Part shown: in pieces, positions 16,199 to 54,423 of the stretch
How the letters are laid out: every line of letters begins with the position of its first letter
Numbering within the stretch: the first letter of the stretch is position 1
Assembly (NCBI RefSeq): GCF_016518545.1
Contig: NZ_JACVTO010000005.1
Location: 1-64,000 of the forward strand
Direction of reading: 5' to 3'
DNA: 64,000 bases
Source: Pseudomonas sp. S30
GTDB taxonomy: Bacteria > Pseudomonadota > Gammaproteobacteria > Pseudomonadales > Pseudomonadaceae
Notes under the pieces: generated by a model
What the model was told of the DNA's origin: nothing
What the model saw: the letters and a program-made list of their open reading frames with translations, nothing else
Databases searched by the model: none
Made by a program: the position numbers and the translations under genes

Positions 16199-16234
16199 AT
16201 ACTGCGTTTCGACCGTGGCGCCAATGCTCCTGGC

Positions 16235-36185: not shown

Positions 36186-37425
36186 TCATGCCCGCACCAC
36201 CCACAGCTGATCGATGCGGGTCGTGTACGACTGGCTCAGCAGCTCCCGACGCATCGCCCAATCGGGGTTCAGCGGTACATTGCCCGACCTCATGGTGCCC
36301 CGCCCATACCGGCCATTGATCTGGTCCATGACCGTCATCAAGCGGTCGCTCTGAGGCGATTGCGAGGTGGCGAACAGGTCGTCCGAAGACTGTCCCGGCT
36401 GGCGCAGGTCGAGCAGCAGGACTTCGGCCTTGCTGTACCGGTAGCCCTCGCGGAACACGCGTTCCAGCGCACGGGTGGCGGCGCGGGTGATCAGCAGCGT
36501 GTCGTTGGTGGGATATGGCAGTTCCACCAGTGCGCCCTGGGCGTGGTGCCGTTCGGCAGGGTTGAACATGCCGGTGCGAATGCTCACCCGCAGCTGCTTG
36601 CACAGCGAGCCTTGCGTGCGCAGCTTTTCAGCCGCACGCCCGGCATAGGTGGCCACCGCCTGCCTGATCGGCGCCAGCTCGCTGAGCCGGTCGCCGAACA
36701 TCCGACTGCAGCAGATTTCCTGCTTGGGCGCCTGCGCCTCCTCCAGCGCCAGGCAGGGCGTGCCGGCCAGTTCCCGTGCGGTCTTTTCGAGCACCACGCT
36801 GAACGTGTCGCGCAACATGCGCGGCTCGGCTCTGGCCAGGTCCATGGCGGTACGAATGCCCATGGCATTCAACGGCGCGAGCAGTCGCCGCCCTACCCCC
36901 CAGACTTCCTTGACCGGGGTGTTGCGCAGCACCCAGTCACGCTCGAAATCCTGGGTGATGTCGATCACCCCACCGGTGCGTTCCAACAGCTGCTTGGCCA
37001 TGTGATTGGCCAGCTTGGCGAGGGTCTTGGTACGCGCGATGCCGACCCCGACCGGTATGCCAGTGCGCTGCGCCACCATCGCCTGCAACGCTCGACCGAA
37101 AGCGGTCAGGTCTTCGCGGATGCCGGAGAGGTCGGCAAAACACTCGTCGATCGAATAGACCTCGACCGCCGGCACCCTCGACTCGATGATCGACATCACC
37201 CGCTCGCTCATGTCGCCGTAGAGCGCGTAGTTGGAAGAAAACGCCATGATGCCGTGCCGGCGCAGCCTTTCCCTGGCCTGGAAATAGGGCTCGCCCATCT
37301 TCACGTACGGCTTGGCATCGTAGGACCTGGCGATCACGCAGCCGTCGTTGTTGCTCAACACCACGATGGGGGTCCTGGCAAGGTCCGGTCGAAACACGCG
37401 CTCGCAGCTGGCGTAGAACGAGTTG
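36186..37425 (-). pseudogene. umuC: umuC 3' fragment (DNA polymerase V catalytic subunit), split by a mobile element
   Basis: On the minus strand the frame runs from the AAC codon at 37424 to the stop at 36186, giving 412 residues that read NSFYASCERVFRPDLART onward, the Y-family polymerase from just after its first catalytic Asp. The second catalytic pair is present (VYSIDECFADLSG), with the fingers/thumb segments GVGIARTKTLAKLANHMAKQL and VKEVWGVGRRL, and the C-terminal little-finger region. The first 12 codons, including the Asp of ALIDC, are at 53,948-53,983, 16.5 kb away. Joined, the two give a 424-residue UmuC, matching the normal length (E. coli 422). No frameshift or other damage is seen, so excision of the element should restore the gene. 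Confidence 0.95.
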
Positions 37426-37452
37426 TTCCGGGGCTTGCTAAAGGTTAGGAAT
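37420..37452 (+). repeat. Left end: GAGTTG core plus terminal inverted repeat
   Basis: GAGTTG (37420-37425) belongs to umuC. The element then reads TTCCGG-GG-CTT-G-CTAA-AG-GTTAG-GA-AT (37426-37452). The blocks TTCCGG, CTT, CTAA and GTTAG are repeated in order in the reverse complement of the right end. Matching is about 20 of 27 positions. Confidence 0.85.
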
Positions 37453-37537
37453 GAAATACGCTCATAAACAATGATTTAAGAAAGATCTAAAACAGCTTGA
37501 GAAGCAATGGGGATAGGTCAAAGACGGAGGGAGGTAG

Positions 37538-38683
37538 ATGGAGCTTGTGTGGGCTACCGAGGACTTGGTGATTGCCGGTCGTCCTTATCCAGGCTTTCCG
37601 ATCCTGCTTTGGGACACGATGGACAGTTGCATCCCGGCCAATGAATTCTTTCGCCACTACCTGTTGCGTGGCGCTATTGGTTCACGAAAGTCATGGCCAA
37701 GCACAGGGCGTGCGCTATATGACTTTTTTAGTTTCCTCCAAGTGCATGACCTTGACTGGCGCGACGTGGAACGTGGCGAGGCCAAGAGTGTCGTAGGGGC
37801 GTACCGGGACTACTCCCTGATGGAGTGCAAGTTGACCTCATCAACAACACGTCAACGGCTGCACTATGTATGCAAGTTCTACGAGTATGCACAGCAGCAG
37901 AGATGGGTGAGCAGACTGCCGTTTGGCCATGAAGAACGAACGGTCAAACGCGTCCTCGGCTTCCTTGCCCACGTCGATACCAAAGGCGGCAAGGCCATGG
38001 TGAACGACATCATGCCGCGCAAGCATCGGACGCTGCCCAAGTTTCTGAGCATGGATGAGATCAAGGCGTTACTGGCTACGCAGGAAAATCCGCATCACCG
38101 AATGATCATTCGGCTCGGACTTCAGACTGGACTGCGTCGGGAGGAAATCGCCTCTTTCCCGCTTGCCTACATCTTCGATCCGGATAGCGCCGGTAGGCGC
38201 GAGCGCAACATCCGGATTCGCCTCGATCCATACGATGGCCATGGCATGCGCACCAAGGGCAGCAAACCGCGCGACATCTACATCAGTCGCCGCTTCCTGG
38301 CGGATTTGCATCGTTACGTAGTGCAGATTCGCGGTGAGCGGGCCTCATTGAGCCGTATCAAACATGAGCCGCTGTTCCTTAACCAGTTTGGTGAGCCCTA
38401 CTCTGATGATGGCAAGCGCATCGCGCGTATCGTCCGGGAAACCGGCAAGCGAGCCGGTATCAGGGTCCATACCCACATGCTACGCCACACCTACGCCACC
38501 CATACCCTGGTCGCACTCCAGCGAAACCGCGCTGGGGTGGATCCGCTGGTGTTCGTGCAGCGGCAGCTTGGCCATAGCTCCATTCAGACGACGATGGTGT
38601 ACCTGCACCTGGTCAACGAACTGGCCGACGACGCGGTGCTGGCCTACGACGATGAGTTGAATGCAGAGCTGGGAGCGGTCTAA
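37538..38683 (+). CDS. Tyrosine recombinase 1 (TnpA-like) of the element
   Basis: The protein has 381 residues from ATG 37538, with a strong site (ggagggaggt). It is closest in size to Tn554 TnpA (361). The C-terminal catalytic domain (about 165-375) has all tyrosine-recombinase residues: Arg in GLQTGLRREEIASFP, His-x-x-Arg in HTHMLRHTYATH, the His of LGHSSIQTT and the nucleophile Tyr in MVYLHLVNEL. The N-terminal core-binding domain spans about 50-140. It is the first gene of the tnp operon, and its stop overlaps the start of the next gene by one base (TAATG). Confidence 0.92.
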   Translation: MELVWATEDLVIAGRPYPGFPILLWDTMDSCIPANEFFRHYLLRGAIGSRKSWPSTGRALYDFFSFLQVHDLDWRDVERGEAKSVVGAYRDYSLMECKLTSSTTRQRLHYVCKFYEYAQQQRWVSRLPFGHEERTVKRVLGFLAHVDTKGGKAMVNDIMPRKHRTLPKFLSMDEIKALLATQENPHHRMIIRLGLQTGLRREEIASFPLAYIFDPDSAGRRERNIRIRLDPYDGHGMRTKGSKPRDIYISRRFLADLHRYVVQIRGERASLSRIKHEPLFLNQFGEPYSDDGKRIARIVRETGKRAGIRVHTHMLRHTYATHTLVALQRNRAGVDPLVFVQRQLGHSSIQTTMVYLHLVNELADDAVLAYDDELNAELGAV

Positions 38684-40359
38684 TGGGCAAACGCAAGGTA
38701 TTCAATAGGACCGACCTTAGCGTCCCACATGTCGAGCATAGCCGCGATACGGCGGGTCGTGTTGTCGTTCTCCCGGAGGCGATTCCACCGGCCACTACTA
38801 CAGTCACCTTCGAGCGCAATGCCACGCGCTCCCGGGGCATCGACTTCGCGCCTTGGTACGGCACGGGCATTGATCCGATCACTTATGCCTGCCAGCGGCA
38901 GATCGAACGCTTCCTGGCCCGGCAGGACGGCGGGCTCGAGGCCAGTTCCGTGGCGAGTATCTGTAAAGGTGGTTTACGTCACTTTCTCAACTACATTGAG
39001 CTGCGCGCAACCGCGCTCGGGCGCGTTCTGACCCTGGACGATATTAATCGCGCTGTAATTGACGGTTTTCTTGGCCACCTCGCTGGACTGGGCATCACCA
39101 CCCTTAGCCAGAGGGGCCATTACACCAGCGCGAAGTCCGTCCTTCATGCGTTGGGCCAGCGTGGGCTTATTTCGTTAGTCTCCACGGGGGACGATGCGAC
39201 TTTCCCACGAAATCCGTTTCCAAACAGTGGCAAGCATAAGGGCGAAAGGCCGCTGCCGAAGCGTCAGCGGCGGGCGTTCACCACCGCGCTCAGGCAAGCG
39301 GTCATGCCGATCTGGCGCGACGATATCCCAGTAACTGGCGAATTGTTGGCTAATGCCCTTCTGACTGTAGCACTGCACACCGGGCGGAACTCCACGCCAC
39401 TGCTAGAGATGGAGCGCAATTGCCTGCGCGCCCATCCCAAGGACAACAGCGTATTCCTGGTCCTTTGGAAGCGCCGCGGCCACACCAGCCACAAGGTGGC
39501 GCTGCGCGCCGAGAATACGACTGCACATCTGTTGGAGTCCACGCCAACCGTCAAGACCAATGTCGAGCGCCTGATACGACGCATCCTTGCCCACAGCGAG
39601 CCGCTGTGCGCGGAGGCCCCGGACGACCTCAAGGATCGCGTGTGGCTGTATCGCGTGCATCGCGGCCCAGGCCCCGGCCGGGTCATTGCACTGACTGACG
39701 GGACGTTGATGCTGGCGATCAAGAAACTCGTGGCCGACCACGGGCTTACCGATATCGACGGCCAACCGCTGCGCATCAACATTTCTCGTCTCCGCAAAAC
39801 GTTCGCCAACCGAATTTTCGAGTTACTAGGGGGCGACCTGGTGACTACGGCCATCGCGCTTGGCAACACGCCACAGGTGGCCGGGCGAAATTATTTGGCA
39901 CCTAGCGGGGACGCGAGGCGCAACTGGAAATTTATGGGCGAGATACTTGTTCAAGAATTACTGACCCGCACCATCGGCGCGACCTACCAGACCACCCCGA
40001 TGGGGCGCTGTGGCGACCCGATGAATGGTCAGTACGCACCGAAACGTGAAGGGGCAGCGTGTTTTTCGTTCCTCAACTGTCTGCGCTGCAAGCATTACGC
40101 AGTGACAGAGGAAGATCTGCACCGCCTATTCAGCTTCTACTTCCGTGTATTCACGGAGCGCACACGCATAGACAAGCGGCGTTGGGCACAGGAATACGCG
40201 CACATTCCTCGATTGATTGACGACTACATTGTAGCCGAGGGGCTGCGGCGCGGGACTTTCAAGCCGGCGGCCGTCGAAGCCGCCCGCGAGCGTGCGCGCT
40301 GCGAGCCGCACCCGTTCTGGTCGTCCGATGTGGTGGAAAAGCTGGAGATCTTTGCATGA
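38683..40359 (+). CDS. Tyrosine recombinase 2 of the element
   Basis: The protein has 558 residues, starting in a TAATG overlap with the first recombinase. The catalytic domain is in the second half: Arg in ALHTGRNSTPLLEMERN, then the box INISRLRKTFANRIFELLGG, where the usual His is replaced (SRLR), and the Tyr in AGRNYLAPSGD. A cysteine pair and histidine in CFSFLNCLRCKHYAV near residue 463 may bind zinc, as in Tn554 TnpB-type proteins. The missing His suggests that it works together with, or is dependent on, the other recombinases. Its stop overlaps the third gene in ATGA. Confidence 0.88.
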   Translation: MGKRKVFNRTDLSVPHVEHSRDTAGRVVVLPEAIPPATTTVTFERNATRSRGIDFAPWYGTGIDPITYACQRQIERFLARQDGGLEASSVASICKGGLRHFLNYIELRATALGRVLTLDDINRAVIDGFLGHLAGLGITTLSQRGHYTSAKSVLHALGQRGLISLVSTGDDATFPRNPFPNSGKHKGERPLPKRQRRAFTTALRQAVMPIWRDDIPVTGELLANALLTVALHTGRNSTPLLEMERNCLRAHPKDNSVFLVLWKRRGHTSHKVALRAENTTAHLLESTPTVKTNVERLIRRILAHSEPLCAEAPDDLKDRVWLYRVHRGPGPGRVIALTDGTLMLAIKKLVADHGLTDIDGQPLRINISRLRKTFANRIFELLGGDLVTTAIALGNTPQVAGRNYLAPSGDARRNWKFMGEILVQELLTRTIGATYQTTPMGRCGDPMNGQYAPKREGAACFSFLNCLRCKHYAVTEEDLHRLFSFYFRVFTERTRIDKRRWAQEYAHIPRLIDDYIVAEGLRRGTFKPAAVEAARERARCEPHPFWSSDVVEKLEIFA

Positions 40360-42245
40360 GTGGCAACAACCTAGTCACGCTATCTTGGGCGAACATCGAG
40401 TCCCAGCCGGGGGAAATATGCGAGTTACCCGAGAGCGATCGCGACGCACTCATCGTCAGCGCCATCCAGGTCGAGGGGCACTGGGTCATCCTCAGCCGCT
40501 ACGGCGACGATATTTGGCAGTTGGACGGCTTTACCAACAACGTGCCAGACAACTTGCGGCGCCAGGACTTCAGCCGTGTGCCTTGTGCGTTTAAGGACGT
40601 GATGAAGGCCCTGCTGTACCGCTACCTGCGGCGCGGCCGCGCGGGGCAGAAGCGCCCCAAAGCGAGCACTTTGCGAAATTTTTTTGAGAATGCGCTGCCC
40701 TTCCTACGGTATCTAAACGCGCTCAAGCTCAATCACTTCGGCGCGGTGACACCCATTGTCTGCGCGAACTACGTTGCCGAGTGTCGGGCGTACAAGCAGA
40801 CGAGCCGGAGCAAGGGTAAGCCGCTGTCTCAGAGCGCCCTTGAGCGCCGCTTCATGGCAGTTGAGGCGCTTCAAGAATTGAGCCAGTACACCCACGATCC
40901 GATCCCTCTGCATCCCTGGCCTGATACTTCCGCGAATGCGCTGGCCCGCAGCGGTACGGCCCGTAGACAGGGCGGCAAAACACCACTGATGTCGGATGAG
41001 GCGTTCTGCGCCCTGTTCGAGAGAGCCTATCAACAGGTTCAGCACGGCAAGGCGCTACTCGATTTACGCGATGCCCTCAGCGCCATCGCAGCACAACGGA
41101 GAAGACAGGTTACCAGAACAGTCATAGAGGCTAAAAACCGCCACCTCGCCACTTTGGGCTGGGATGGCGGCTTGGGGGCATTTAATCAGGCGATCCTTGA
41201 TTTACGGACTGCCTGCTACATCGTGTTGGCCAGCACCTCCGGTTGCCGCAACCACGAACTGGCCAACGTCCAGTCGGGCGCGCACCACTGCACCGAGGAC
41301 GACGAAGGAATGATCTATCACTGGATGCGTTCAAGGTCGGATAAGACCGACACTGGTGTACACGACTGGATGATCCCCGAAGTCGCCGTACGCGTGTTGC
41401 GCCTGATGGAGCGTTGGGCCGAGCCATATCAAGCTATGATCGCCACCGAGATTGCCGAGCGGAGAAGGGTCAATCTGCGCGACCCAGAAATCGCCACGGC
41501 GCGTAAGCATCACCATGCACTCTTTCTCGGGGTGTGCCCTGCAAAGGGCAATTTAGTTCGCACCCTGTCGGGCATTACATGGAACCATGCCCTCAAGGCG
41601 TTCACGCAGAGCTGTGGGCTGGACTGGAACCTCGCCAGCCATCAATTTCGCCGCAAATTCGCCAACTACGCAGCGCACAGCCAATTTGGCGACTTGCGCT
41701 ATCTGCGCGAGCACTTCGCACACTGGTCCATGGACATGACGCTGGGCTACGCGATGGATGAGGACTGGGGTGAGCACCTCGACATCGAGTTGTACAGCGA
41801 CATCCAGGCAGAACTCGAAGACATCAAGTTCGGCGTCGTTGACACTTGGATGGGGGACGAACCGCTGGCGGGAGGCTACGGTCGCTCAATCAAACGCTGG
41901 CAGCGCGATCCGGCGAGCCTCGCCATCTTTAAGAGTCATGCATCGATGGTGACCTCAATTTCCGAGAGCACCGCGATCCGCAGCAATGGCCATGCCTGGT
42001 GTACCGCGAGCGACGACCGTTGCATCGGCAACACATTAGAGCGGACTCGCTGCGGCGACTGCCATAACGCGGTGATTGGGCGCGGCCATATTGGCATATA
42101 CCAACGTCTCTACGACAACCTGAAAGGGTTGCTGGATTGCAGCGACCTCGGTGACGGTGGCCGCCAGCGCATCTTGCGCGACCTAGAGCGCTGCCGTGAC
42201 GTCCTCGTGCAACTTGGATACGACCCGGAGATAAACCTAACATGA
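40356..42245 (+). CDS. Tyrosine recombinase 3 (TnpB-like) of the element
   Basis: The protein has 629 residues, the same size as Tn554 TnpB (630). The N-terminal 200 residues are a core-binding-type helical region. The catalytic domain (about 275-480) has Arg in LASTSGCRNHELANVQ, His-x-x-Arg in ASHQFRRKFANYAAH, and Trp/Tyr in HFAHWSMDMTLGYAM. A C-terminal zinc-finger-like patch follows (WCTASDDRCIGNTLERTRCGDCHN, seen near residues 547-570). Overlaps with the preceding and following genes are ATGA, so the whole operon is translationally coupled. Confidence 0.9.
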   Translation: MSGNNLVTLSWANIESQPGEICELPESDRDALIVSAIQVEGHWVILSRYGDDIWQLDGFTNNVPDNLRRQDFSRVPCAFKDVMKALLYRYLRRGRAGQKRPKASTLRNFFENALPFLRYLNALKLNHFGAVTPIVCANYVAECRAYKQTSRSKGKPLSQSALERRFMAVEALQELSQYTHDPIPLHPWPDTSANALARSGTARRQGGKTPLMSDEAFCALFERAYQQVQHGKALLDLRDALSAIAAQRRRQVTRTVIEAKNRHLATLGWDGGLGAFNQAILDLRTACYIVLASTSGCRNHELANVQSGAHHCTEDDEGMIYHWMRSRSDKTDTGVHDWMIPEVAVRVLRLMERWAEPYQAMIATEIAERRRVNLRDPEIATARKHHHALFLGVCPAKGNLVRTLSGITWNHALKAFTQSCGLDWNLASHQFRRKFANYAAHSQFGDLRYLREHFAHWSMDMTLGYAMDEDWGEHLDIELYSDIQAELEDIKFGVVDTWMGDEPLAGGYGRSIKRWQRDPASLAIFKSHASMVTSISESTAIRSNGHAWCTASDDRCIGNTLERTRCGDCHNAVIGRGHIGIYQRLYDNLKGLLDCSDLGDGGRQRILRDLERCRDVLVQLGYDPEINLT

Positions 42246-42655
42246 CGACCAAACGCAAGCCCTCGGACGCCCGCGAGCGGGATTTGCGACTCGCGCTCGC
42301 CCGCATCCAGCGTGGTCGAGCACATACCGGAGAATCCAAGGTCACTATCGCCTCTGTGGCGCGCGAGGCTGGCGTTTCGACGGCGCTGATTCACAACCAC
42401 TACCCCATAATCGCTGAGGCGATCCGCGATGCTCAAGGGCGTTCCAGTCGCGCCCAACGCGATGTGAAACACCAGGATCTCTGTGCGGAGCGTGAGAAGA
42501 ATCGCGCGCTTCGCCAGGAGATAGAGGGACTGCGCGCCAAGGTAGCCAGCCTTGCCTCCATCAACGAGGTTTTGCTAGCCGAGAACCGACTTCTAAAGGC
42601 AAAGCAGAGCGACTCCAAGGTGATCGACCTGCCCCCCGTGCATATTCTGACGTAA
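42242..42655 (+). CDS. Small TnpC-like accessory protein (HTH plus coiled coil)
   Basis: The protein has 137 residues. The N-terminal half has a helix-turn-helix like that of TetR or TnpC proteins (VTIASVAREAGVSTALIHNH). The second half is a long charged helix (LCAEREKNRALRQEIEGLRA, then LASINEVLLAENRLLKAK), likely a coiled coil for dimerisation. Tn554 TnpC (125 residues) has the same position and size and affects orientation and frequency of transposition. DUF6262 is the probable family. It starts in an ATGA overlap with the third recombinase. Confidence 0.85.
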   Translation: MTTKRKPSDARERDLRLALARIQRGRAHTGESKVTIASVAREAGVSTALIHNHYPIIAEAIRDAQGRSSRAQRDVKHQDLCAEREKNRALRQEIEGLRAKVASLASINEVLLAENRLLKAKQSDSKVIDLPPVHILT

Positions 42656-42834
42656 TCTCGAGAGCAGTCGCCCACTGATAATGCTCCCATGGCACTGCCA
42701 GTTATGCGCTTTCCGCCGAATCAGATGGCGTTGAGGTTTTCTAAGTGAAGAAACGAGCGTACAAGGCAAGCGTTTGGCATGTAAAATCCCTCCAGCAGAT
42801 CGATTAATTCGGTAATAGGATAAAAGGAAGCATC

Positions 42835-45800: not shown

Positions 45801-47790
45801 TTCTGCCTACGGTCTAAAAGATGGCGACTCTGTCTTCTTTAGGACGAAACAAGACAGGGCTTCCTACCGCAAACGGAAAGCCGCGCTTGAAAGACTGCTT
45901 GATAGGGAGGGGGTCTTGCCTGACCTGCTCGATTTGTTCGACCCCGCATGCAACAAGAATGCAACGCCATACAACATTTCGGTCACTGAGGAGGACTTCG
46001 CCAGATACGACCGCCAAGACCAGCATGGAAACAAGATTAGCCTAAACGAACAACAGCGAGAGGCATTCACCAAGCTGCTTAACTACGGACCTCTGTCGCT
46101 CTTGCAAGGACCGCCAGGGACAGGGAAGACGGAATTCATCGCTGCATTCGTCCACTTTCTCGTCGAGAGGCTGGATGTGCGAAGAATTCTGCTGGTCAGC
46201 CAATCTCACGAAGCGGTCAACACGGCTGCAGAGCGGATAAGGAAGCACTGCAGGAGGTTGGGGACTTCGCTCGAAGTCGTCAGGTTCAGCAACCGTGAAG
46301 GGGCAGTTTCGCATGGTCTGAAAGACGTTTACTCTCATGCCATCACCGCAGAAAAGCGCGAATTGTTCAACGCCGAGTATCGCTACCGTGTTGCTGCTCT
46401 ATCAGATGCGCTGGGTCTCGACGCTGAATTCATCTCCAAGGTCGTCGAAGCGGAGTTGAAACTGTTCAAGCAGATTGACCATCTCGAGTCTCTCCTCAAG
46501 AACTTTGAGAACGTTGGCGATAAGGAGGATATCAAAGCCCTCAAACCGATCGTAATTGAACTGGATGAAACCATCCGAACCAAGCTTTACGCGGATTACG
46601 GCATTGCTCTTTCACAGGAACGCAAGGTTTCGGAAGCGAAGTCGATCCTGCTTTCCAATCTCTGTTCCGAGTATGGTGTTCGGCCAAATGAAGCTAAAAG
46701 GGTTCGGGCATTGGCTAGGATATCCCGAGACATCCAGGACGCCCTGTCGGCAGAGAGGGTCAATTGCGACGAGTTCTACGCCCGGTCTAGACAACTGGTT
46801 ACCGGCACCTGCGTCGGTATTGGGCAAGGGCATATCGGGATTCACGACAACTTTTATGATTTCGTAATTATAGATGAGGCGGCTCGTTCAATATCCAGCG
46901 AACTGGCGATTGCTATGCAATCGGCGAAACGCATTCTTCTGGTCGGCGACCATTTGCAACTGCCCCCCCTATATTCAGACGCACACAAAGCCGCTCTTGC
47001 TCGTCGACTTGGAATCAACGACAAGCACACCGAGCTTGATGAAGTATTGCGAAGCGACTTTGCACGGGCTTTCAATTCGGAATATGGGAAGCAATCGAGC
47101 GCTACGCTGCTCACTCAGTATCGGATGGCCCCGCCCATCGGGAATCTGGTTTCCCAGACCTTCTACGACGGCAAGCTGAACAATGGAGATCGTGCTATTC
47201 CCGACATCTATAGGGGTGCTCCGAGCCAGCTTCGCTCCCCCGTGACTTGGCTCGACACTTCATCGCTTGGGGAACATGCCAATCACCAAAGCGACCGTGG
47301 CGTCAGTATTTACAACCGTTGCGAGGCAGAGCAGGTCATCGACCTTCTCAAACAGATTTCAGAGAGCGGTCAATTTCTGACCGACCTTTCCAACCTTAAG
47401 GACAAAGATGATGCGCTTATCGGTGTTATCTGCATGTATGCAGAACAAAAACGTCTGATTCGGCAGAAATTCAACCAAGGAATTTGGAACGACGGGTTCA
47501 AGGCACTGGTAAAAATCGACACTGTCGATAGCTACCAGGGCAAGGAAAACCGAATTATCATTTTGAGTCTGACGCGCTCCGACAAACGGAAGAGTCCAGG
47601 CTTCCTACGCACCCCCAATCGAATAAACGTCGCGATGTCCAGAGCAATGGATCGGCTGCTAATCATCGGTAACGCGGAGATGTGGAAGATCCACAACAAG
47701 GACAAACCTCTCGAACAGGTTGTTTCCTACATGAGCGATATGGGCGAGGATGCAGGCTACAAGTTCATATCCGCGAAGAAGATCCGCTAA
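42835..47790 (+). CDS. NERD nuclease - twin kinase - SF1 helicase protein (Mokosh MkoA-like)
   Basis: The protein has 1651 residues, starting at TTG 42835 behind aaaggaag. Residues about 35-150 are a NERD nuclease-related domain with intact acidic residues (GEFDLVIVTHC, then VELKDW). Residues about 230-490 are a first kinase-like domain with HRDIADHSLWLS, but no DFG-type loop is visible. Residues about 520-770 are a second kinase-like domain (HGDLHPSNVMLDK near 632, then YLIDIPDFS). Residues about 1070-1640 are a COG1112-type helicase: Q-motif LNEQQREAFTKLL, Walker A GPPGTGKTE (about 1092), Walker B VIIDEAARS, motif V DSYQGKENRIIILSLTRS and motif VI NRINVAMSRAMDRLLI. Mokosh type I combines a kinase-helicase protein with a second gene; NERD is an added domain here. 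A role in phage defence is inferred. Confidence 0.85.
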   Translation: MDIEIWDGGLQEQEIEAINKIKAAFADTLHASKLQGGGNSLRDQLQNKLGRIQSHPWKGYAGFRFVDSKGKEGEFDLVIVTHCNVIIVELKDWNHEPVTANGDIWFKGDKNMGRSPVSITRNKKFLLDNKLKRLSSRFTNKKYLPRVNFFVVMTGSSDFGQLPEVDRQHTISLRDFLRFADKVKFNDYFRPHPDSQVLNQDIPVFDELFLKGNTAPKSLKIGGYTAVEEIFEHPNSVYKEYLARSEISKGNEALLRVWNFKKLHGNKAVTSQGRAEIVSREREVLQFINHQNRDLYNHCLRSLTSFEKDEVTSQYSELYELPPGHVRFNEFVGKYGQSFNQADRLILTKLLLAKFGDLHEIKIAHRDIADHSLWLSPSKEIALSNFISAYHQPIGTVGDYRSSLSVGSVEVKELLDGSSSTPFQQDVHALGLVSWHLLTAQRMSPKSLENIQNELLSSSEWYAGALLEAVTGKFKDASVFFDALKRAEPQGESIPTFDDSELEAYRHPINHTRQFPDQGEFLVSTDDKEVYASEGRLVKAWFNVGGKGDDPVSNFRILTFLKRLDKLAAVNPIYLPRIHEYGLAARAGSMYLVTDLVDGTTWADAAIDDSDKLGVIEKLIDAVEHLHSLGISHGDLHPSNVMLDKEHGSVYLIDIPDFSHSTVEAKNHRYSPENIDGSSSEQRDIFAVLRMSCELLGLEWGEVSNAYPRVSDAIQSELSDIEFGFKDFGRFRKALTTAVDVQEQQLIEITLSNTNEQVTILPDNGHLYVKVEAPKKGKSDYSVTFSGIGGSFVAFYDKEQRCFVGGLPPRIRSDVPFRAAEESQFEISASIRIKPGRPAQLSGLSEHLRDHDAFRRAIVMLQTVPPEIDESGLSQQLKDVFERAAASVEEDRSDISFDISTQALWQAILATETESSPNIELNGASTTPSDADSELILPYEADIDPLGAFASTDEVEALLIDQDGAEKVIGEVSLKKSALNEVRLNKVRLSAYGLKDGDSVFFRTKQDRASYRKRKAALERLLDREGVLPDLLDLFDPACNKNATPYNISVTEEDFARYDRQDQHGNKISLNEQQREAFTKLLNYGPLSLLQGPPGTGKTEFIAAFVHFLVERLDVRRILLVSQSHEAVNTAAERIRKHCRRLGTSLEVVRFSNREGAVSHGLKDVYSHAITAEKRELFNAEYRYRVAALSDALGLDAEFISKVVEAELKLFKQIDHLESLLKNFENVGDKEDIKALKPIVIELDETIRTKLYADYGIALSQERKVSEAKSILLSNLCSEYGVRPNEAKRVRALARISRDIQDALSAERVNCDEFYARSRQLVTGTCVGIGQGHIGIHDNFYDFVIIDEAARSISSELAIAMQSAKRILLVGDHLQLPPLYSDAHKAALARRLGINDKHTELDEVLRSDFARAFNSEYGKQSSATLLTQYRMAPPIGNLVSQTFYDGKLNNGDRAIPDIYRGAPSQLRSPVTWLDTSSLGEHANHQSDRGVSIYNRCEAEQVIDLLKQISESGQFLTDLSNLKDKDDALIGVICMYAEQKRLIRQKFNQGIWNDGFKALVKIDTVDSYQGKENRIIILSLTRSDKRKSPGFLRTPNRINVAMSRAMDRLLIIGNAEMWKIHNKDKPLEQVVSYMSDMGEDAGYKFISAKKIR

Positions 47791-47800
47791 GGTGACGACT

Positions 47801-49231
47801 TTGGAAAACACTACGATTTATCACGAGATTGACTTCCTGTTGCCAGCGCAACGCTTCAATATTAATTTCTCGTACATTACCCAAAAGGGGCTGCCGTTCG
47901 TTCGGGAATTTGTTCTTCGCCTGATCCACCTTGCGCCGATGTCAATGTCGCAGGTTGCGGATTTTTTCGGCTTTTCACGCAGGGAAGTTCAAGAGGCAAT
48001 TAGTGACCTCGTCGAGCGCGGCGAACTGACGTTGTCCGAAAATGGTCGTCTGACCCTTACGGAGAAATCTAGCGGTTACTTTACGGAACTCGGTGAGGTT
48101 CCGCGTTTGTCGCTGCTTCGAGACAGCACGGCTTGCTTGTCTTTCGACCTCGCAACCTTTTCATGCCTTGGTAAAGACAACTCGTCAGAAAAATGGAAAG
48201 CGGGACTTTCAATCAAGGTCGACGACGAGAATGCATCTTGCAGCGAGACACAGGTGGAAAAGCATTTCCAGCGTCAGTTCCATGAAATCTTGCAGAAGAA
48301 CTTTCTTTCCAGCTCGCTGACCCTGGATGAAAAGGACTCACCGAATGTCTACACAGTGAATTCGGTGCACAAGATTAAGCAGATGCCCGTCAGACTGCCG
48401 GTTCAGTTCAAGGTTGACGAGGATGGCAGAAGCGTCGAGCGGGAGGATTTCGAGAAGCTAAAAAGCTCAGACTACGTGCATGAGCGAATTTCGCTGGAAC
48501 TTGACCGTTTGGCAAGACCCAGCAATTTTGGCGAGATTGCGAGAGCCTTGATCGAAATTGGGGACGGCGAGACATTGAAGCTCTTCGACTCGAAGGGTAG
48601 CTCCGTCAGCCTGCAATTTTTCGAAGACTTGGCGAAACTGGAATCCAACAGTCAGAAGAAGAGAACCACCTTTATCGGACCAATCTACGCGTCGGCAAAT
48701 TGGGGGTTGCTCCAGAAACATCTGGCTCCCCTCATCAAGGCGAGGAGAGAAAGCAAGGCGGACGTGGGGAAAACTCCATTCCTTTGGCTTGCACCAAGCG
48801 ACCCGTATTGGGGAAAAAGCAGCAATCTCCAGACAAGAGTCAGTGAGATTCTCAGCATGGCAAGTACGAAAGAGAAGAGGCTCTATTCGCCTACCTTCTA
48901 TTTGCCTGTCTCCGGAGCAGATGACCAGAAGACTGCCCGCCAGTGGAAATGGGAGTTCGACCCTAACACCGACAAGGTTCATGGGGTGATTGAGGGCTTC
49001 CTTGGCGGGAATGTCGAGGTGATGCACTTCGAAGGTGAGTTTGTGGTTGTCGTTTATCACGTCTCATTGCCTGACTCTTACCCTGTCAGCTTCCCTATCG
49101 GATTCATCAGTGCCGATAAAGATGTCGTCTCGTCTGTTGGACGGCTGGTTACGACATACCTAGAGGGCAGTTCTGGCTTTGAACGTCCTAACGATTGTGG
49201 ATTGCTATCCCGTTTCGGGCGTTATGAATGA
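47801..49231 (+). CDS. Winged-helix partner of the NERD-kinase-helicase gene
   Basis: The start TTG 47801 (LENTTIYHEIDFLL), with aaggtg 5 nt upstream, gives 476 residues and is preferred; GTG 47792 is an alternative. Residues about 45-100 form a winged helix (MSMSQVADFFGFSRREVQEAISDLVERGELTL). Residues about 105-475 have no family I recognise. FIGPIYASANWGLLQKHLAPLI and FLWLAPSDPYW could belong to a divergent PLD-like fold, as in Mokosh MkoB, but no HxKxxxxD motif is seen. It starts 10 bp after the large gene, uses the same TTG start, and is almost certainly its partner. Confidence 0.75.
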   Translation: MENTTIYHEIDFLLPAQRFNINFSYITQKGLPFVREFVLRLIHLAPMSMSQVADFFGFSRREVQEAISDLVERGELTLSENGRLTLTEKSSGYFTELGEVPRLSLLRDSTACLSFDLATFSCLGKDNSSEKWKAGLSIKVDDENASCSETQVEKHFQRQFHEILQKNFLSSSLTLDEKDSPNVYTVNSVHKIKQMPVRLPVQFKVDEDGRSVEREDFEKLKSSDYVHERISLELDRLARPSNFGEIARALIEIGDGETLKLFDSKGSSVSLQFFEDLAKLESNSQKKRTTFIGPIYASANWGLLQKHLAPLIKARRESKADVGKTPFLWLAPSDPYWGKSSNLQTRVSEILSMASTKEKRLYSPTFYLPVSGADDQKTARQWKWEFDPNTDKVHGVIEGFLGGNVEVMHFEGEFVVVVYHVSLPDSYPVSFPIGFISADKDVVSSVGRLVTTYLEGSSGFERPNDCGLLSRFGRYE

Positions 49232-49526
49232 TCAAGATCAGAGTTGAGTTGTGAATTGTGTTAGCCCGTAGTGCTGTCCCACCTGGTTACGCAATAATTT
49301 CAAGCGTCTGTTTTGTGCTGAAATCCTGCCGCTAGGTGCGCGCCGACTGAATGACCGCTTCGGCCGACAAGCATGAATTGACCATCCGGCAGGTATCAGA
49401 ATGAAGTAGCCCTTTGAATATCTCTCGCTCTGCTCAGGCGACAGTCCGGTTCTTGCCGATCTCTGCCCTTGGTGAACAGGCAGAAATCGGCAAGGAACGG
49501 TTATTTGCGACCACATTTTTTACCCG
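49232..49526. other. Intergenic gap with a long hairpin between the two defence modules
   Basis: The genes at 49231 (plus) and 49527 (minus) converge here. An almost exact inverted repeat of about 19 bp pairs 49449-49467 with 49479-49498, starting GTTCTTGCCGAT on one side and ending ATCGGCAAGGAAC on the other, around an 11-nt loop. It may terminate both transcripts. Two copies of GTTGAGTTG-like sequence near 49244 repeat the core hexamer GAGTTG, possibly a trace of an older junction. No gene is supported. Confidence 0.6.
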
Positions 49527-51323
49527 TCAAGAAAGCTGGTCATACTGGAACGCACATCCGGCAAGTACGTCAGTTGGTTGATAATCTCCGCTCCAGCCTC
49601 GACTGCGACCGCGCTCAGAGATCAGATGTAGGTTCTTTCTGGCCCGCGACGACACCACATACATGAGCTTATTCGCAGTCTCGGCTTGGTTCGGATCACT
49701 GAAGTGGGGAACCATCCCTTCTAGCAGGCCATAGGCGATCACTGCGTCATACTCGGCACCCTTGACCCCGTGGATCGTCGATACGGTAACACCTGTGCGG
49801 TTCGCAAAGACCTTCCTGAACATCGCCAATTCAGCAATCGCCTCAGCGCCTTCCTTTATGAGTTTATCGATGCGCCTCTGCGAGCATTCGAAGAAAGCGT
49901 CGTGATGCTCTTGGAGTGCTGCGCAGCTGCGGCGATCGATCTCGAAAGTGGAACATAGCTGGTCGAAGAACGCCCGAAGGTAGACCAGGCCATCGGTCTC
50001 GGTGATGGTGATGGCGTTGCAGGCGCGCAGCAGTGTCTTGCGGTCCAAACCTGGAACCTCGACGCCCGCATCGCTGAGGCCGGCGATTACCTCTCCCGCC
50101 CATCGCATTCGGCGTACATACAGCTGTGGGGACGCCTCCGTCAGAATGATCCGGGCGAGCTTGTACCAGAAATTGTCAACGTCGCGCGCGAAGGGCACCA
50201 TGCCCGGGCCATCGAACGAATAGTTCGGAAGCGCTGCGACCAGCCGGCGTGTCATGCTTGCGAGATGGACCCACCAAGGCGCAACGATGCAGACCTCATG
50301 CTGAGAGATCCCGAGCGTTTCGACGTTGAATTTGATGAGCCTTACAAGCTCTTCCTCCAGCGCGTCGCGGTGTGTCTGGTGATCGAACGACACAACGCTC
50401 GCGTAATCCTTGTCTTTTCCCACCGCCTCGACCTTCGAAGGCAAGACGTTGTAGTTGCCGAAATAGCTCACAATGCGGGATGACGACCGGTAATTGTCTG
50501 ATAGCTCCATTTCCTTGAAGGCGATGCCGCACTGCGTCCCAAAGTCCGCCGCCGTGATCGCATAGCCGCCAAGCGAGCCATAGATTGCCTGATTAGGGTC
50601 GCCTACAACAAAGGCGGAGGCACCGCCTTTAGACGCTTTCAGGATCGATGCGAGGATCGCATATTGAATTTCCCGCGTATCCTGAAACTCATCGAGAAGC
50701 ACGCATTCGAAGATCGAGCCGAGCAGCACGCTGATCGAGAGATTCTTCTCAATGAGTTGATAGGCGTAGAAAAGGATCAGCTCAAAATCGAGCTGCCGCT
50801 CGGCATCAAGCGCCTTCCAATATGCCTGCAAAACTCCCTCAATTGCTTGATGCTTGTCGGTCTTGTTGCATGTCAGGACATAGCCGTTCGGCGTGAAATA
50901 ATAGGCGCAGTCGAAGCTGCTGAGCTTAGTGCCCTGCACCGCGCTGCAGAACTCCTCCAGCATTAGTTCGGTGTCATGGGCATTGATCACCCGGAAACCG
51001 TGCTTGAGCGCCGAGTGATAGATTCCGTAGGGCTTTAAGATCCATTCGAGACAGAAGGAGTGGATCGTGCCAATCCAAAGTTGGCTCGTGTCGACGCCAA
51101 GCTGCTCGATACGCTCGTGAATCTCATCCGCAGCCCTGTGCGTGTAGGTGATCGCGACGACGCGTTTTTTGTCCGACTTAAGCTCCGACAACAGGCGGGC
51201 GATCTTGTAGGTGAGGGTTCTCGTTTTACCGCTCCCCGGGCAGGCAACGAGGAAAACGCTGCCTGGATGCTCGATGGCTGCGACTTGGGCGTCGTTCAGG
51301 TCCTTCCTGTCCCAGATAAACAT
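49527..51323 (-). CDS. gajB: UvrD/Rep-type helicase of a Gabija-like system
   Basis: The start at ATG 51323 (MFIWDRKDLNDAQVAAIEH) gives 598 residues; the frame upstream to 51509 lies within the GajA gene. It shows superfamily 1A motifs: Q-motif, Walker A ACPGSGKTRT (residues 27-36), Ia TYTHRAADEI, Walker B VLLDEFQDTRE (about 209), motif III VVGDPNQAIYGSLGG, motif IV-V region STIHGVKGAEYDAVIAYGL (about 516), and motif VI YVVSSRARKNL. It is longer than the founding GajB (about 494) but starts 1 bp after the OLD-nuclease gene, the Gabija arrangement. It should act on DNA and help trigger the GajA nuclease. Confidence 0.88.
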   Translation of the reverse strand: MFIWDRKDLNDAQVAAIEHPGSVFLVACPGSGKTRTLTYKIARLLSELKSDKKRVVAITYTHRAADEIHERIEQLGVDTSQLWIGTIHSFCLEWILKPYGIYHSALKHGFRVINAHDTELMLEEFCSAVQGTKLSSFDCAYYFTPNGYVLTCNKTDKHQAIEGVLQAYWKALDAERQLDFELILFYAYQLIEKNLSISVLLGSIFECVLLDEFQDTREIQYAILASILKASKGGASAFVVGDPNQAIYGSLGGYAITAADFGTQCGIAFKEMELSDNYRSSSRIVSYFGNYNVLPSKVEAVGKDKDYASVVSFDHQTHRDALEEELVRLIKFNVETLGISQHEVCIVAPWWVHLASMTRRLVAALPNYSFDGPGMVPFARDVDNFWYKLARIILTEASPQLYVRRMRWAGEVIAGLSDAGVEVPGLDRKTLLRACNAITITETDGLVYLRAFFDQLCSTFEIDRRSCAALQEHHDAFFECSQRRIDKLIKEGAEAIAELAMFRKVFANRTGVTVSTIHGVKGAEYDAVIAYGLLEGMVPHFSDPNQAETANKLMYVVSSRARKNLHLISERGRSRGWSGDYQPTDVLAGCAFQYDQLS

Positions 51324-51324
51324 T

Positions 51325-53460
51325 CTAGAAGCTCGCCAGGATCGTGTTGATGCCGTCTGCAGGAAACGCCTGTAGCATTTCGGCGCGTACCCCTGCGAAG
51401 TCGATCTCGCCGCGATGGTAGCGTCTGATTTGCGCGCGCATCGCGTCAATGTCCCCTGATGCGTGTAGTTGCGACGCGGCAATGACCGAGACCCGATAGT
51501 CCAACACACGCGCCCATGTCTGGATGGATACTGGGATATGCGCTTGGAAGATCGCGTCGAGGATGTAATCCGGAATGACGGTTTCAGGCGTGATCATTCG
51601 CCCCAAGATGATGGCGAACCACCCCTTTCCGGCGTAACGTGCCATCGTCAGAACGCGCGTCCCGAAACGTGCGATGTCGCCCGATTCCAGCTCCATCTTA
51701 GACGTCGCGATAGTGCGGCTATCTTTGTAGACTTCGCTCAGCACCGAAACGACAGTGCTGACATTGCCGGCGGAGACGAAGTCGACCTCGAAAGTGTGGT
51801 CGGCGAAGTGCGCTGTCAGCCAGGGGTTCCCGTCACACAACTCTTTGAGCGCCGCTTCGCGCCGTAGTCCAGCGATCTGTGCCCCCAGTGCCCTCTTCTT
51901 TGCGGCCGCCTCATCGCCACTGTCGAGTATGCTCTTGGTCGTATCGATAAACGCGCGGTCAAGGTCGGTAATGATCGCACAGCGCTTGCGGATGCGCTCC
52001 TTGTGGAAAAGCACCGCCACATTCTCGAAGCCGGTGCTGCGGATGTTGATCAAGCTGATCCCCAGCTCGTCCAGGCTGAGCCCGAACACCTTTTTAATGA
52101 GGATCGGGATGAGAATCTCCTCGGCGTCGCCCTCGACGAGCACCACGCTTTTGGCGAAGAGGAGATTGCTGCGGACTGCATCAAGGTAGCGCTGGATATT
52201 GCCAATCTGGATGGGGTCAAGTCCCGCAGATGGCTGGAACACCTCACATCGTCCGTCCTGCCGGCCGAGGATGTTGATGTTCACGACGTTGTTCACTTCG
52301 GATATGTGGGTCGAATGGGTCGAATAGATGATCTGGGTATCATCAAAGTTCAGCCGGTCGAACAGTGTTTTCTGGATATGCGTGTGGATGTGCGCCTCCG
52401 GCTCCTCGATAACGAGGAAGTTGGCGAAGGACTCTTTCTGCTTCTGATATTTGAACTCTAGCAGCTTCAGCGTCAGGTAGATCAGGTTTGCACCGCCCAG
52501 GCTCAACTCGTGAATTGCGCCCTCATATTCTTCCTCGCTCTCGCCCACAAATAGCTTGAGCGACTGGAACAGGCGGTCGGCCTCGTCGGACAGATCCGAG
52601 CGGATTGAAAGTGAACGCGGGGAGTAGGTCTCGCCTGCCGCATCGGTGATGGTGTCGCGAATATCGGTGCGGATGGTTCCGACATCTGGTAGGCCCTCGA
52701 TTGCATCGTTAAGCCCCTTTACGAGCGCGGTGATCGGCTCGAAGCTCTGCGGATCGATCGCACCGCTCCGGCACTTGAGCAGAGTTAGGAGGGGGTTGGT
52801 GCGGTTGTTCTGAAAGTCAGCGACTACATCGCGCAGTGCCTGCACGAAGGTGAAGCACACTTCGCGCGAGATTGAGAGCATGCCCGGGATGATGCCGCCG
52901 ATAGCAGGGCTCGTCAGTTCTTGGGGAAAGATTACCGCATCGAAGTCGCCAACCAGTTGCCTATAGATTTCGGGATCGAGGAAGTTTGTGGTGCTCTTGC
53001 CGGTGAAGATCGTTTCATAATCCGAAACGGTGATTTTCGAACGTGCCTCGGCGAGTCCTACGGTATCACCAGCGGCAAGGTCGGCCAGTGTCCGTCGAAC
53101 TGCCGCCTTAGGGCGAAAAATAAGGTTGTAGGTCGCCTTGCCGATCGCGCCGTCGGCGATGTTACCGGTCCCATGGAGAAAGAGGGATTGAATCGCCTCG
53201 TCCTGGGATACCTCATCGAATTCGAGGCTAATGACTATCCAGTGACCGCGCCAGTCGCCAAGGCCCCGGTGGAAATCCTTCTCGTCGAGCCTATATGCCG
53301 CGCGCAGCAGCGTGTCGTCTAACAAGAGACGCAACGCCCGGAACAGGTTGGTCTTGCCTGATCCGTTCTCGCCGATGATCGTGTTTACACCCTTGTTGAA
53401 TATGACATTCGCACACTTGAAATTTCGGTAGTTGACGAGTTGTAACTTTGAAATATGCAC
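51325..53460 (-). CDS. gajA: OLD-family ATPase-TOPRIM nuclease of a Gabija-like system
   Basis: The GTG start at 53460 (HISKLQLVNYRNFKC follows) gives 711 residues. Residues 1-430 are an ABC-type ATPase: GENGSGKTN (about 31-39), the signature region HELSLGGANLIYL, and EEPEAHIHTHIQ (about 350). Residues 435-560 are a TOPRIM domain with its metal-binding Glu in VVLVEGDAEEILIPILI (about 441) and the DxD in IITDLDRAF (about 498). The combination with a UvrD helicase gene is that of class 2 OLD proteins, known as Gabija in phage defence. It exceeds the founding GajA (about 578), so it is a long subtype. Catalytic residues look intact. Confidence 0.9.
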   Translation of the reverse strand: MHISKLQLVNYRNFKCANVIFNKGVNTIIGENGSGKTNLFRALRLLLDDTLLRAAYRLDEKDFHRGLGDWRGHWIVISLEFDEVSQDEAIQSLFLHGTGNIADGAIGKATYNLIFRPKAAVRRTLADLAAGDTVGLAEARSKITVSDYETIFTGKSTTNFLDPEIYRQLVGDFDAVIFPQELTSPAIGGIIPGMLSISREVCFTFVQALRDVVADFQNNRTNPLLTLLKCRSGAIDPQSFEPITALVKGLNDAIEGLPDVGTIRTDIRDTITDAAGETYSPRSLSIRSDLSDEADRLFQSLKLFVGESEEEYEGAIHELSLGGANLIYLTLKLLEFKYQKQKESFANFLVIEEPEAHIHTHIQKTLFDRLNFDDTQIIYSTHSTHISEVNNVVNINILGRQDGRCEVFQPSAGLDPIQIGNIQRYLDAVRSNLLFAKSVVLVEGDAEEILIPILIKKVFGLSLDELGISLINIRSTGFENVAVLFHKERIRKRCAIITDLDRAFIDTTKSILDSGDEAAAKKRALGAQIAGLRREAALKELCDGNPWLTAHFADHTFEVDFVSAGNVSTVVSVLSEVYKDSRTIATSKMELESGDIARFGTRVLTMARYAGKGWFAIILGRMITPETVIPDYILDAIFQAHIPVSIQTWARVLDYRVSVIAASQLHASGDIDAMRAQIRRYHRGEIDFAGVRAEMLQAFPADGINTILASF

Positions 53461-53915
53461 GAATAACGTACCCCCGCTTAGCCGTAGCTCACTATTTTAG
53501 CCTGCACAATCGAGCTGGAGCATTGTGCACTCCCGTGGCTTGGTGGTGAAGATGCGGCTCAATCGCTTAGCAAAGCGCCGATCGATTCCTGCATTGTTGG
53601 CGGACACAAGACCCGGCGGCCCTGCAAACGCTGCAGCCCCTGCGATGTTGACCGGGAGTAATCGGAGTAGACCACAATATTGATTGATGACGGGGTAGTC
53701 CAAAACGAATTTTGCTGCCAGTGAGTGGCTGCCCTTGGCCGCTTGTCACCCGTTACGACCGAACGATTTGGGGCGACTGCGGCCGATGAAGGAAGCGCCA
53801 TTTCGAGTGGTGACATACATATCCTTGCCATTGGCTAGATTCAGTAGAATACGGGCCTCGAAAAATCTATAAATAGTTACAAACAGTAACGCGTTGAATT
53901 AAATTAAAAAAATCA
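53461..53915. other. Non-coding right part of the element
   Basis: These 455 bp lie upstream of gajA. They should hold its promoter. Short open frames on the minus strand (for example 53559-53831) have no recognisable product. The stretch 53855-53915 is very AT-rich (tataaatagttacaaacagt) and may include a promoter or recombinase-binding sites. Confidence 0.45.
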
Positions 53916-53948
53916 ATACTAACGGTTAGTAAGGGTCCGGAAGAGTTG
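53916..53948 (-). repeat. Right end: terminal inverted repeat plus GAGTTG core
   Basis: Read inward on the minus strand from 53942 the element begins TTCCGG-ACC-CTT-A-CTAA-CC-GTTAG-TA-TT, matching the left end in the blocks TTCCGG, CTT, CTAA and GTTAG with one extra base. Next to it, GAGTTG (53943-53948) is the second copy of the core hexamer and continues into umuC. Confidence 0.85.
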
Positions 53949-53983
53949 CAGTCGATCAGCGCGAACACCGGCTCATTGCGCAT
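53943..53983 (-). pseudogene. umuC: umuC 5' fragment
   Basis: On the minus strand, ATG 53983 starts MRNEPVFALIDC, followed by AAC-TC, at which point the element begins. This is the N terminus of UmuC with the first catalytic Asp (Asp11). It overlaps the end of umuD by 11 nt, the normal umuDC coupling. It continues at 37424 after the 16.5-kb insertion. In place the fragment would run on for only a few codons into element DNA and give no polymerase. Confidence 0.93.
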
Positions 53984-54410: not shown

Positions 54411-54423
54411 ACTCAACCATAAA

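What the first reader, a model, noticed from the sequence alone, without database searches (positions are those of the whole stretch)
37420..53948. A 16.5-kb Tn554-like element splits umuC exactly at its active-site codons
The two umuC parts sit at both ends of the element and share the hexamer GAGTTG. Inverted repeats (TTCCGG..CTT..CTAA..GTTAG) face inward. The element has three recombinases plus a TnpC-like gene. Insertion by a recombinase trio into a conserved DNA-repair gene recalls Tn554 in radC, but I know of no description of umuC as a target. The hexamer lies in codons for the catalytic Asp-Cys-Asn-Ser region, a very conserved target.
Basis: partly seen in the sequence, partly recalled or inferred. 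Interest (0 to 1): 0.88.

Follow-up and report, generated by a model that had tools for sequence, protein, structure and literature searches.

The report
Defence-carrying mobile element splitting umuC
A 16.5-kb mobile DNA element carrying two anti-phage defence systems has inserted into the gene for an error-prone DNA repair polymerase in a Pseudomonas; the element belongs to a recently described class, and this gene is already a reported landing site for such elements, though at other points.

Summary
In detail: a 16,517-bp element (37426-53942) with imperfect inverted ends sits between two GAGTTG hexamers inside umuC, at codons 12-14. [quoted passage not shown] umuC/rulB is already a published hotspot (ILEs 2014; tmexCD-toprJ elements 2021-2023), but those I could place use other points: SNND (site B) and SVDE (site C). 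This clade uses a third, site A. GAGTTG is not a target duplication: in a plasmid pair with identical flanks the intA-side hexamer equals the empty site and the far-side hexamer is foreign, as expected of an SE footprint. Cargo is Mokosh (mkoAB) plus Gabija (gajAB). Of 20 close family members with a readable left flank (window included), 15 sit in umuC at this codon and four in other genes; one has umuC on its right side only. Five of the 15 also have an ILE-type end at site B, 76 bp away. What seems new is site A, the stacking and the natural footprint evidence. Movement was not tested.

The parts
36186..37425 (-). 3' part of umuC, including the attL hexamer
   Evidence: NCBIfam NF002955 472 bits for 36189-37397; frame RNNSFYASCER reads into the hexamer
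37420..37425 (.). attL hexamer GAGTTG (host copy in the SE model)
   Evidence: in pAFM-PA19-3158 the same position equals the empty site
37426..37448 (+). left terminal repeat TTCCGGGGCTTGCTAAAGGTTAG
   Evidence: same or similar end in relatives
37538..38683 (+). ORF1 = IntA, tyrosine recombinase, 381 aa
   Evidence: PF00589 1.5e-19; R200, K240, R316, H346, Y355 invariant in 41 rows, H313 in a 6-row alignment; IntA of SE-Pda04Ya311 E 1.8e-12
38683..40359 (+). ORF2 = Tfp, recombinase-fold protein without the HxxR motif, 558 aa
   Evidence: no Pfam hit; matches SE Tfp E 7.6e-7 but not IntB; motif read
40356..42245 (+). ORF3 = IntB, large tyrosine recombinase, 629 aa
   Evidence: R298, K330, H429, R432, H456, Y465 invariant; matches SE IntB E 1.3e-11 but not Tfp
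42242..42655 (+). ORF4 = Srap-like small protein, 137 aa
   Evidence: DUF6262 below the Pfam cut-off; Srap of SE-Pda04Ya311 E 3e-4, probability 40%
42835..47790 (+). mkoA, Mokosh NERD-kinase-helicase, 1651 aa
   Evidence: PADLOC MkoA 2081 bits; NERD, Pkinase, AAA_11, AAA_12
47750..49231 (+). mkoB, Mokosh partner, 493 aa
   Evidence: PADLOC MkoB 1.3e-138
49527..51323 (-). gajB, Gabija UvrD-like helicase (ORF open from 51509; start placed by the profile match)
   Evidence: PADLOC GajB 856 bits, match from residue 63
51325..53460 (-). gajA, Gabija OLD-like ATPase/TOPRIM protein, 711 aa
   Evidence: PADLOC GajA 1035 bits; OLD-like TOPRIM
53919..53942 (-). right terminal repeat CTAACGGTTAGTAAGGGTCCGGAA (plus-strand letters)
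   Evidence: similar right ends in relatives
53943..53948 (.). attR hexamer GAGTTG (carried footprint in the SE model)
   Evidence: foreign at this position in pAFM-PA19-3158
53943..53983 (-). 5' part of umuC, codons 1-14 (two bases of 14)
53973..54416 (-). umuD, intact (ORF; true start not settled)
   Evidence: NF007621 over its cut-off, Peptidase_S24
54424..54439 (.). LexA-box-like CTGTATATTCGTACAG beside umuD
   Evidence: the only match in the window, 0.75 expected by chance; meaning rests on position

Best explanation
[quoted passage not shown] IntA and IntB are the catalytic recombinases, Tfp and Srap their partners (roles from the SE papers). Copies leave as a circle carrying the 6 bp that lie beside the intA end; on entering a new umuC the host's 6 bp stay beside the intA end (attL) and the carried 6 bp are left at the far end (attR). 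Shown here: anatomy, homology to a published SE, the shared umuC site, and hexamer patterns in relatives that fit this rule. Inferred: that this copy can move, and that it moves by copy-out. The cargo gives Mokosh and Gabija anti-phage defence by homology; umuC is cut and no second UmuC was found in the genome.
For: Profile comparisons with SE-Pda04Ya311 match gene by gene in order, with two crossed pairs as controls: ORF3-IntB 1.3e-11, ORF3-Tfp 0.18; ORF2-Tfp 7.6e-7, ORF2-IntB 0.28; ORF1-IntA 1.8e-12; ORF4-Srap 3e-4. Catalytic residues in ORF1 and ORF3, HxxR missing in ORF2. All four genes in this order in 22 of 23 relatives examined; ORF4 was not found in L050 (20 of the 23 were picked by their ORF2, three by ORF1). 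Empty-site test: pAFM-PA19-3158 has attL CTGTTG and attR GAGTTG; pPUV-4 and pRBL16, identical over 601 of 601 left-flank bases, read CTGTTG, and pPUV-4 is identical over 500 of 500 right-flank bases. Same-element test: Stutzerimonas CLN100 and Pseudomonas MMS21 TM103 carry elements 99.82% identical over 11.2 kb in umuC genes about 66% alike; attL differs (CTATTG, CTGTTG), attR is GAGTTG in both. Other-gene tests: P. grimontii attL TTATTG encodes the Asn-Asn of TTGTTG seen in 4 of 5 homologues (the fifth gave no alignment), attR is CTGTTG as in umuC genes; P. kielensis attL is nearer than attR to 5 of 10 homologues (five gave no alignment).
Against: No movement, circle or joint was measured. 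In the window both hexamers are equal, so it does not itself tell the sides apart. P. baetica (L068) has attL CGGTTG, encoding Asn-Arg where the other umuC flanks read have Ser or Asn, and no close empty site was found. In pAR19438 (L032) attL equals the empty pSTY site, but the right junction is about 3 bp shorter than a clean 6-bp exchange. A third plasmid with an identical left flank, pJB37, reads CTGCAATCG, three bases fewer than the empty site, with other DNA soon after. L064 and L066 share the right flank but not the left, so L064 may be a recombinant or misassembled MAG. For L069 the two ends lie on different contigs and are paired by inference. ORF4-Srap is weak. No GInt protein was at hand, so a GInt was not excluded by sequence.
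Confidence: 0.86

Rival explanations
1. It is a GInt (genomic island with ginABCD) that excises and integrates conservatively with 6-nt staggered cuts; unequal hexamers come from heteroduplex repair.
For: GInts share the four-gene plan, 6-nt staggered cuts, imperfect repeats and a GinD with some identity to TnpC. Heteroduplex repair could also make attL and attR differ, and GInt scars with 2- or 6-nt deletions were reported, not unlike the 3-base-shorter pJB37.
Against: In GInts the non-catalytic member is the third gene; here it is the second and the third is fully catalytic. Profiles match SE Tfp and IntB in SE order. In the two cases with an identical-flank empty site, attL is the host's.
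Confidence: 0.08
2. It is a Tn554-family transposon (TnpA, TnpB, TnpC).
For: A site-specific target in a DNA-repair gene, a small auxiliary gene, and a carried 6-bp footprint, also reported for Tn554.
Against: Tn554 has no Tfp counterpart; here a Tfp homologue is present. No Staphylococcus or Enterococcus record was among the 60 of 263 rows listed for ORF3, though ORF1, a generic integrase, hits 22 and 43 such records. Tn554 proteins were not compared directly.
Confidence: 0.03
3. It is an SE by descent but now a dead relic: the flanking repeats record a past insertion and the module no longer works.
For: No test of activity was possible.
Against: All four module genes are open and the catalytic residues kept; near-identical copies of related elements lie in different hosts and sites (99.8-100%).
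Confidence: 0.15

Closest known systems
Strand-biased circularizing integrative elements (SE-6283, SE-6945, SE-Pda04Ya311; PMC10214605, parts 1, 3, 4, 5 of 10 and passages read)
   Same: intA-tfp-intB-srap order, catalytic pattern, imperfect inverted ends, hexamer rule, size (16.5 kb against a median of 15.7 kb); no conjugation gene among the eight element genes identified
   Different: Target is umuC site A; cargo is Mokosh plus Gabija; similarity to the pAQU1 SE was tested by profile only. 'umu' and 'rulB' do not occur in the main text of the SE paper.
Integron-like elements (ILEs) in rulB, pWW0 and pGRT1 (PMC4542609, parts 1-4 of 8 read)
   Same: Three recombinase-type genes plus a small TetR-like gene; target is umuC/rulB; homologous proteins (27-49% identity)
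   Different: ILEs insert at SNND/SNSD (site B), 76 bp further into umuC where both are present, and in the opposite orientation in L082 and pGRT1; a 3-bp GAT repeat was reported.
tmexCD-toprJ 'int-int-hp-hp' elements in umuC (PMC8547460, PMC10654056, PMC9769874: passages read); SE-PaeBT2436, which carries such genes, is named an SE in PMC10214605
   Same: umuC hotspot, about 15 kb, integrase-borne
   Different: In p243931-IMP, the one inspected, umuC breaks at the SVDE motif (site C) with resistance cargo; no integrase gene was annotated in the 20 kb fetched. The SE-PaeBT2436 protein ids were not seen in the 22 kb of pBT2436 fetched.
GInts (PMC5385486, parts 1-2 of 6 and passages read)
   Same: Four-gene operon, cargo, AT-rich far end, imperfect repeats, 6-nt cuts
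   Different: Non-catalytic protein is third, not second; other targets in the parts read (ABC transporter, ssb, ribonucleotide reductase)
Tn554 (from PMC10214605)
   Same: Carried 6-bp footprint, small auxiliary protein, DNA-repair target (radC, recalled)
   Different: No Tfp counterpart

Membership tests
SE | Operon intA-tfp-intB-srap with homologous products in that order | tested here: met
   Srap weak
SE | IntA and IntB carry RHRY; Tfp does not | tested here: met
   (H313 of IntA invariant only in the smaller alignments)
SE | Imperfect inverted terminal repeats (13-19 bp in the first SEs) | tested here: met
   ends compared over 23 and 24 bp; similar ends in relatives
SE | attB 6 bp at attL, carried 6 bp at attR | tested here: met
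   Met in relatives: one clean empty-site case, one same-element pair, two other-gene cases. The window is uninformative; L032 and L068 are imperfect cases.
[quoted passage not shown] one-strand joints | not testable with these tools
   needs DNA from the strain
GInt | ginA and ginB catalytic, ginC (third) non-catalytic | tested here: not met
   the second gene lacks HxxR, the third is complete; GInt pattern
GInt | Sequence clusters with GinC/GinD | not tested
   no GInt reference sequence was fetched
Tn554 family | TnpA, TnpB, TnpC, no Tfp | tested here: not met
   a Tfp homologue is present; the Tn554 content is
ILE (rulB type) | Insertion at the GAT of SNND in rulB | tested here: not met
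   window site is codons 12-14; pGRT1 is at SNSD

The most novel reading that the evidence does not exclude
umuC is a multi-berth dock: separate recombinase-run families each use the DNA of a different conserved motif of one DNA polymerase gene (D-C-N-S-F-Y, S-N-N-D, S-I/V-D-E), can sit there side by side, and borrow its LexA-controlled promoter. In the site-A orientation the far end of the element lies downstream of umuD; here gajA-gajB run the same way with no predicted terminator between, so DNA damage could raise Gabija expression.
Probability: 0.3. Interest if true: 0.65.

Novelty: new member of a known kind. Interest (0 to 1): 0.45.

Why it matters
It connects rulB integron-like elements, umuC-borne tmexCD-toprJ elements and SEs; the SE paper names a tmexCD carrier as an SE, but umu and rulB do not occur in its main text. 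It shows that one SOS polymerase gene offers several berths, two of which can be filled at once, and it gives natural evidence for the SE hexamer rule in Pseudomonas. The attR hexamer then works as a record of an element's previous address: a P. grimontii copy in another gene carries a umuC-type hexamer. It also shows SEs as carriers of stacked anti-phage systems and a recurrent way of losing an error-prone polymerase.

Tried and rejected
The hexamer-pair pattern in the own genome found only an unrelated place. Viral contigs held no relative. The first classification of flanks was wrong for minus-strand loci and was redone. The right-end scan gave mainly chance hits, and its output was cut; it was replaced by the pattern (8 of 11 genomes or records matched; none for L035, L060, L063). 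Right hexamers are printed about one base out of register and were read from the strings. Right ends of L081 and L084 were not sought. Searches for close empty sites of L058 and L068 found only distant or partial umuC matches; not used. The profile A2 found no solved structure. I looked in pBT2436 for SE-PaeBT2436 and found a mercury-resistance ILE at site B instead. PADLOC on 10 selected cargo proteins of six relatives: 5 of 10 had a hit at 1e-10 (one of three in L058, mad3-like; PDC-S06 in L068 and L082; RT UG17 and an LmuB-like hit in L034), 5 had none, among them those of L033, L063 and L065. Tn554 and GInt were considered and set aside as above. Dropped or flagged rows: L061 has no left flank (contig end), L083 has umuC on its right side only, L072 is a fragment, L064 and L069 are flagged, pJB37 is not counted as an empty site.
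Full report
WHAT IS THERE. Two GAGTTG hexamers at 37420-37425 and 53943-53948 bound a 16,517-bp insert. Outside lie the two parts of a minus-strand umuC; joined with one hexamer they give one 424-codon frame. The break covers the end of codon 12, codon 13 and the start of codon 14, just after Asp-11. That this Asp is the first catalytic carboxylate of Y-family polymerases is recalled. umuD is intact. The only other hit of the UmuC family in the genome is a weak partial one.

MODULE. ORF1 (381 aa), ORF2 (558), ORF3 (629) and ORF4 (137) run away from the left end with overlapping or touching ends. Across the family plus one site-B and one site-C relative, ORF1 and ORF3 keep the tyrosine-recombinase residues; ORF2 does not keep HxxR, though it keeps Arg and Tyr residues. 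I fetched the SE of pAQU1 next to blaGMA-1, reported as active in the SE paper, and compared profiles: ORF1, ORF2 and ORF3 match their positional counterparts, ORF4 weakly, and the two crossed controls fail. This is the SE plan, intA-tfp-intB-srap. In GInts the member without the motif is third.

CARGO. PADLOC gives full-length MkoA and MkoB (Mokosh) and GajA and GajB (Gabija). mkoAB runs with the module; gajAB runs the other way, from the right end inward.

TARGET. I took family members whose IntA is at least 76% identical: 13 loci, six plasmids, one genome (L035) and the window, 21 in all, some of them near-copies of one element. L061 starts at the element's end, leaving 20. Fifteen are in umuC at the same codon: window, L032, L033, L057, L058, L060, L063, L064 (a decayed umuC), L065, L066, L068, L069, L081, L082, L084. 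L083 has umuC on its right side only. L035, L059, L062 and L067 are in other genes. Of the more distant relatives fetched (IntA about 75% or less: L034, L040-L044, L046-L054, L070, L071, L085) none showed umuC in the left flank; L048 and L070 had no recognisable left end. On an IntA tree of 39 rows the umuC label needs four changes against a shuffled mean of 11.8, 0 of 500 shuffles as low. There L083 was labelled umuC, L061 'other', L081 was left out, near-copies cluster by themselves and the bootstrap had not fully settled.

HEXAMERS. Both ends were read for 11 of the 15 umuC insertions. attL/attR: window GAGTTG/GAGTTG; L033 CTGTTG/GAGTTG; L057 CTATTG/GAGTTG; L058 CTGTTG/GAGTTG; L065 CTGTTG/GAATTG; L068 CGGTTG/GAGTTG; L069 (ends on different contigs) and L082 CTGTTG/CTGTTG; L066 TTATTG/TTATTG; L064 TTGTTG/TTATTG (flagged); L032 GAGTTG with an irregular right junction. 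In other genes: L062 TTATTG/CTGTTG, L059 GCAATC/TTGTCG, L067 TCCATG/TCCATG. So 9 of 14 differ, L064 and L032 included. Which side is the host's? For L033 I fetched three plasmids with identical left flanks: pPUV-4 and pRBL16 read CTGTTG, the attL letters; pJB37 reads CTGCAATCG, three bases fewer, with other DNA soon after, and is not counted. For L032 the empty pSTY has GAGTTG, again attL. L057 and L058 hold the same element (99.82% over 11.2 kb) in umuC genes about 66% alike, with different attL and the same attR. For L062, 4 of 5 homologues could be aligned and all read TTGTTG, the Asn-Asn also encoded by attL. For L059, 5 of 10 could be aligned and read GCGATG (3) or GCCACC (2), nearer to attL than to attR. 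This is the rule described for SEs: host 6 bp at attL, carried 6 bp at attR. L068 is a caution, since its attL would encode Arg. L033 and L059 have modules identical over 5,215 bp in different genes and hosts.

OTHER BERTHS IN umuC. Mapping a 1,683-bp umuC-umuD stretch of pRBL16 on PLSDB gave 113 records; 60 were listed, evenly spread down the ranking. Of these 17 are covered at 99% or more, 1 breaks at site A, 16 at codons 32-34 (SNND, site B), 20 at codon 103 (SVDE, site C), 3 at codons 79-83 and 3 otherwise, one of which is the right-hand piece at site A in L083's plasmid. I inspected few of them. Site B holds ILE-type modules in pLHL1-KPC-3 and pBT2436, and in pGRT1, a reference ILE. At site C, pPUV-5 has a four-gene module some kilobases in, with weak similarity to ours, and p243931-IMP the tmexCD3 region. 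Near codon 79 p12939-PER has a two-gene recombinase pair; at codon 83 no recombinase was annotated in the 11.7 kb of pPUV-6 fetched. Five of the 15 site-A insertions (L060, L065, L069, L081, L082) also have an ILE-type end at site B, each exactly 76 umuC bases away; in L082, the one with a gene table reaching past both, the two integrase genes stand head to head. In 18 distinct UmuC sequences (the reference is counted twice) the 8-residue windows at sites A, B, C, 79 and 83 rank 11, 2, 69, 39 and 60 of 413 for conservation: all within the top 17%, but the windows overlap and conservation does not by itself explain site choice.

SOS. A LexA-like box lies at 54424-54439 beside umuD (0.75 expected by chance in the window, so its place is the argument). 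The consensus scan found no terminator between umuD and gajA, and no sigma-70-like promoter; shuffles gave 1.4 and 1.2, so these absences say little. gajAB and umuDC run the same way, so read-through is possible but untested. In five other site-A right ends the ORF nearest the end runs this way in three (two of them the same element) and the other way in two. In pGRT1 (site B) it is the integrase that lies downstream of umuD.

LITERATURE. Rhodes 2014 (PMC4542609, parts 1-4 of 8 read): rulB insertion of ILEs at GAT with three recombinases and tetR; it also cites disruption of umuDC-like genes in other bacteria. PMC8547460, PMC10654056 and PMC9769874 (passages): umuC as hotspot for tmexCD-toprJ elements; no codon position was given in them. 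PMC10214605 (parts 1, 3, 4, 5 of 10 and passages): SE class. PMC5385486 (parts 1-2 of 6 and passages): GInts; it cites Rhodes. PMC11064530 (passages): an SE with a 6-bp footprint in P. aeruginosa. PMC9345347: term search only, no hit for umuC or footprint. In my searches no listed paper appeared, from titles and term counts, to join SEs with umuC or rulB, or Mokosh or Gabija with umuC in this sense; I opened only those named. That is an absence in an open-licence library, not proof.

VERDICT. A real, well-bounded element; a new member of a known class in a known target gene, at a berth I did not find described in what I read. The general points, several berths in one polymerase gene, double occupancy and readable footprints, are the part of interest.

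Noticed in passing
L082 (P. putida YC-AE1 plasmid) 3053-19112: umuC interrupted by two recombinase modules whose integrase genes stand head to head about 290 bp apart, 76 bp of it umuC, with a further integrase pair beyond.
   Followed up: partly
L145 (pJB37) umuC: At site A this umuC reads CTGCAATCG, three bases fewer than the empty site of sister plasmids, and its DNA departs soon after; could be a scar or an unrelated rearrangement.
   Followed up: partly
L152 1-9601 (pPUV-5): A four-gene module near a site-C break and an ILE-like sulP/uspA/dksA/sdiA set lie next to each other, suggesting double occupancy of umuC at sites B and C.
   Followed up: partly
L149 (p12939-PER) 2678-5859: umuC broken near codon 79 beside a two-gene recombinase pair (339 and 721 aa), possibly another family using umuC.
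   Followed up: no
L034 26399-32497 (pPVG21): A more distant relative, not in umuC, carries a SLATT protein, a UG17-type reverse transcriptase and a large ATPase as cargo.
   Followed up: partly
L064 and L066: Same element and identical right flank but unlike left umuC flanks: recombination between copies or a MAG assembly error.
   Followed up: partly
L040, L041, L043, L044, L049, L051, L052, left flanks: Seven relatives share similar flanking DNA at a different common target; the gene was not identified.
   Followed up: no
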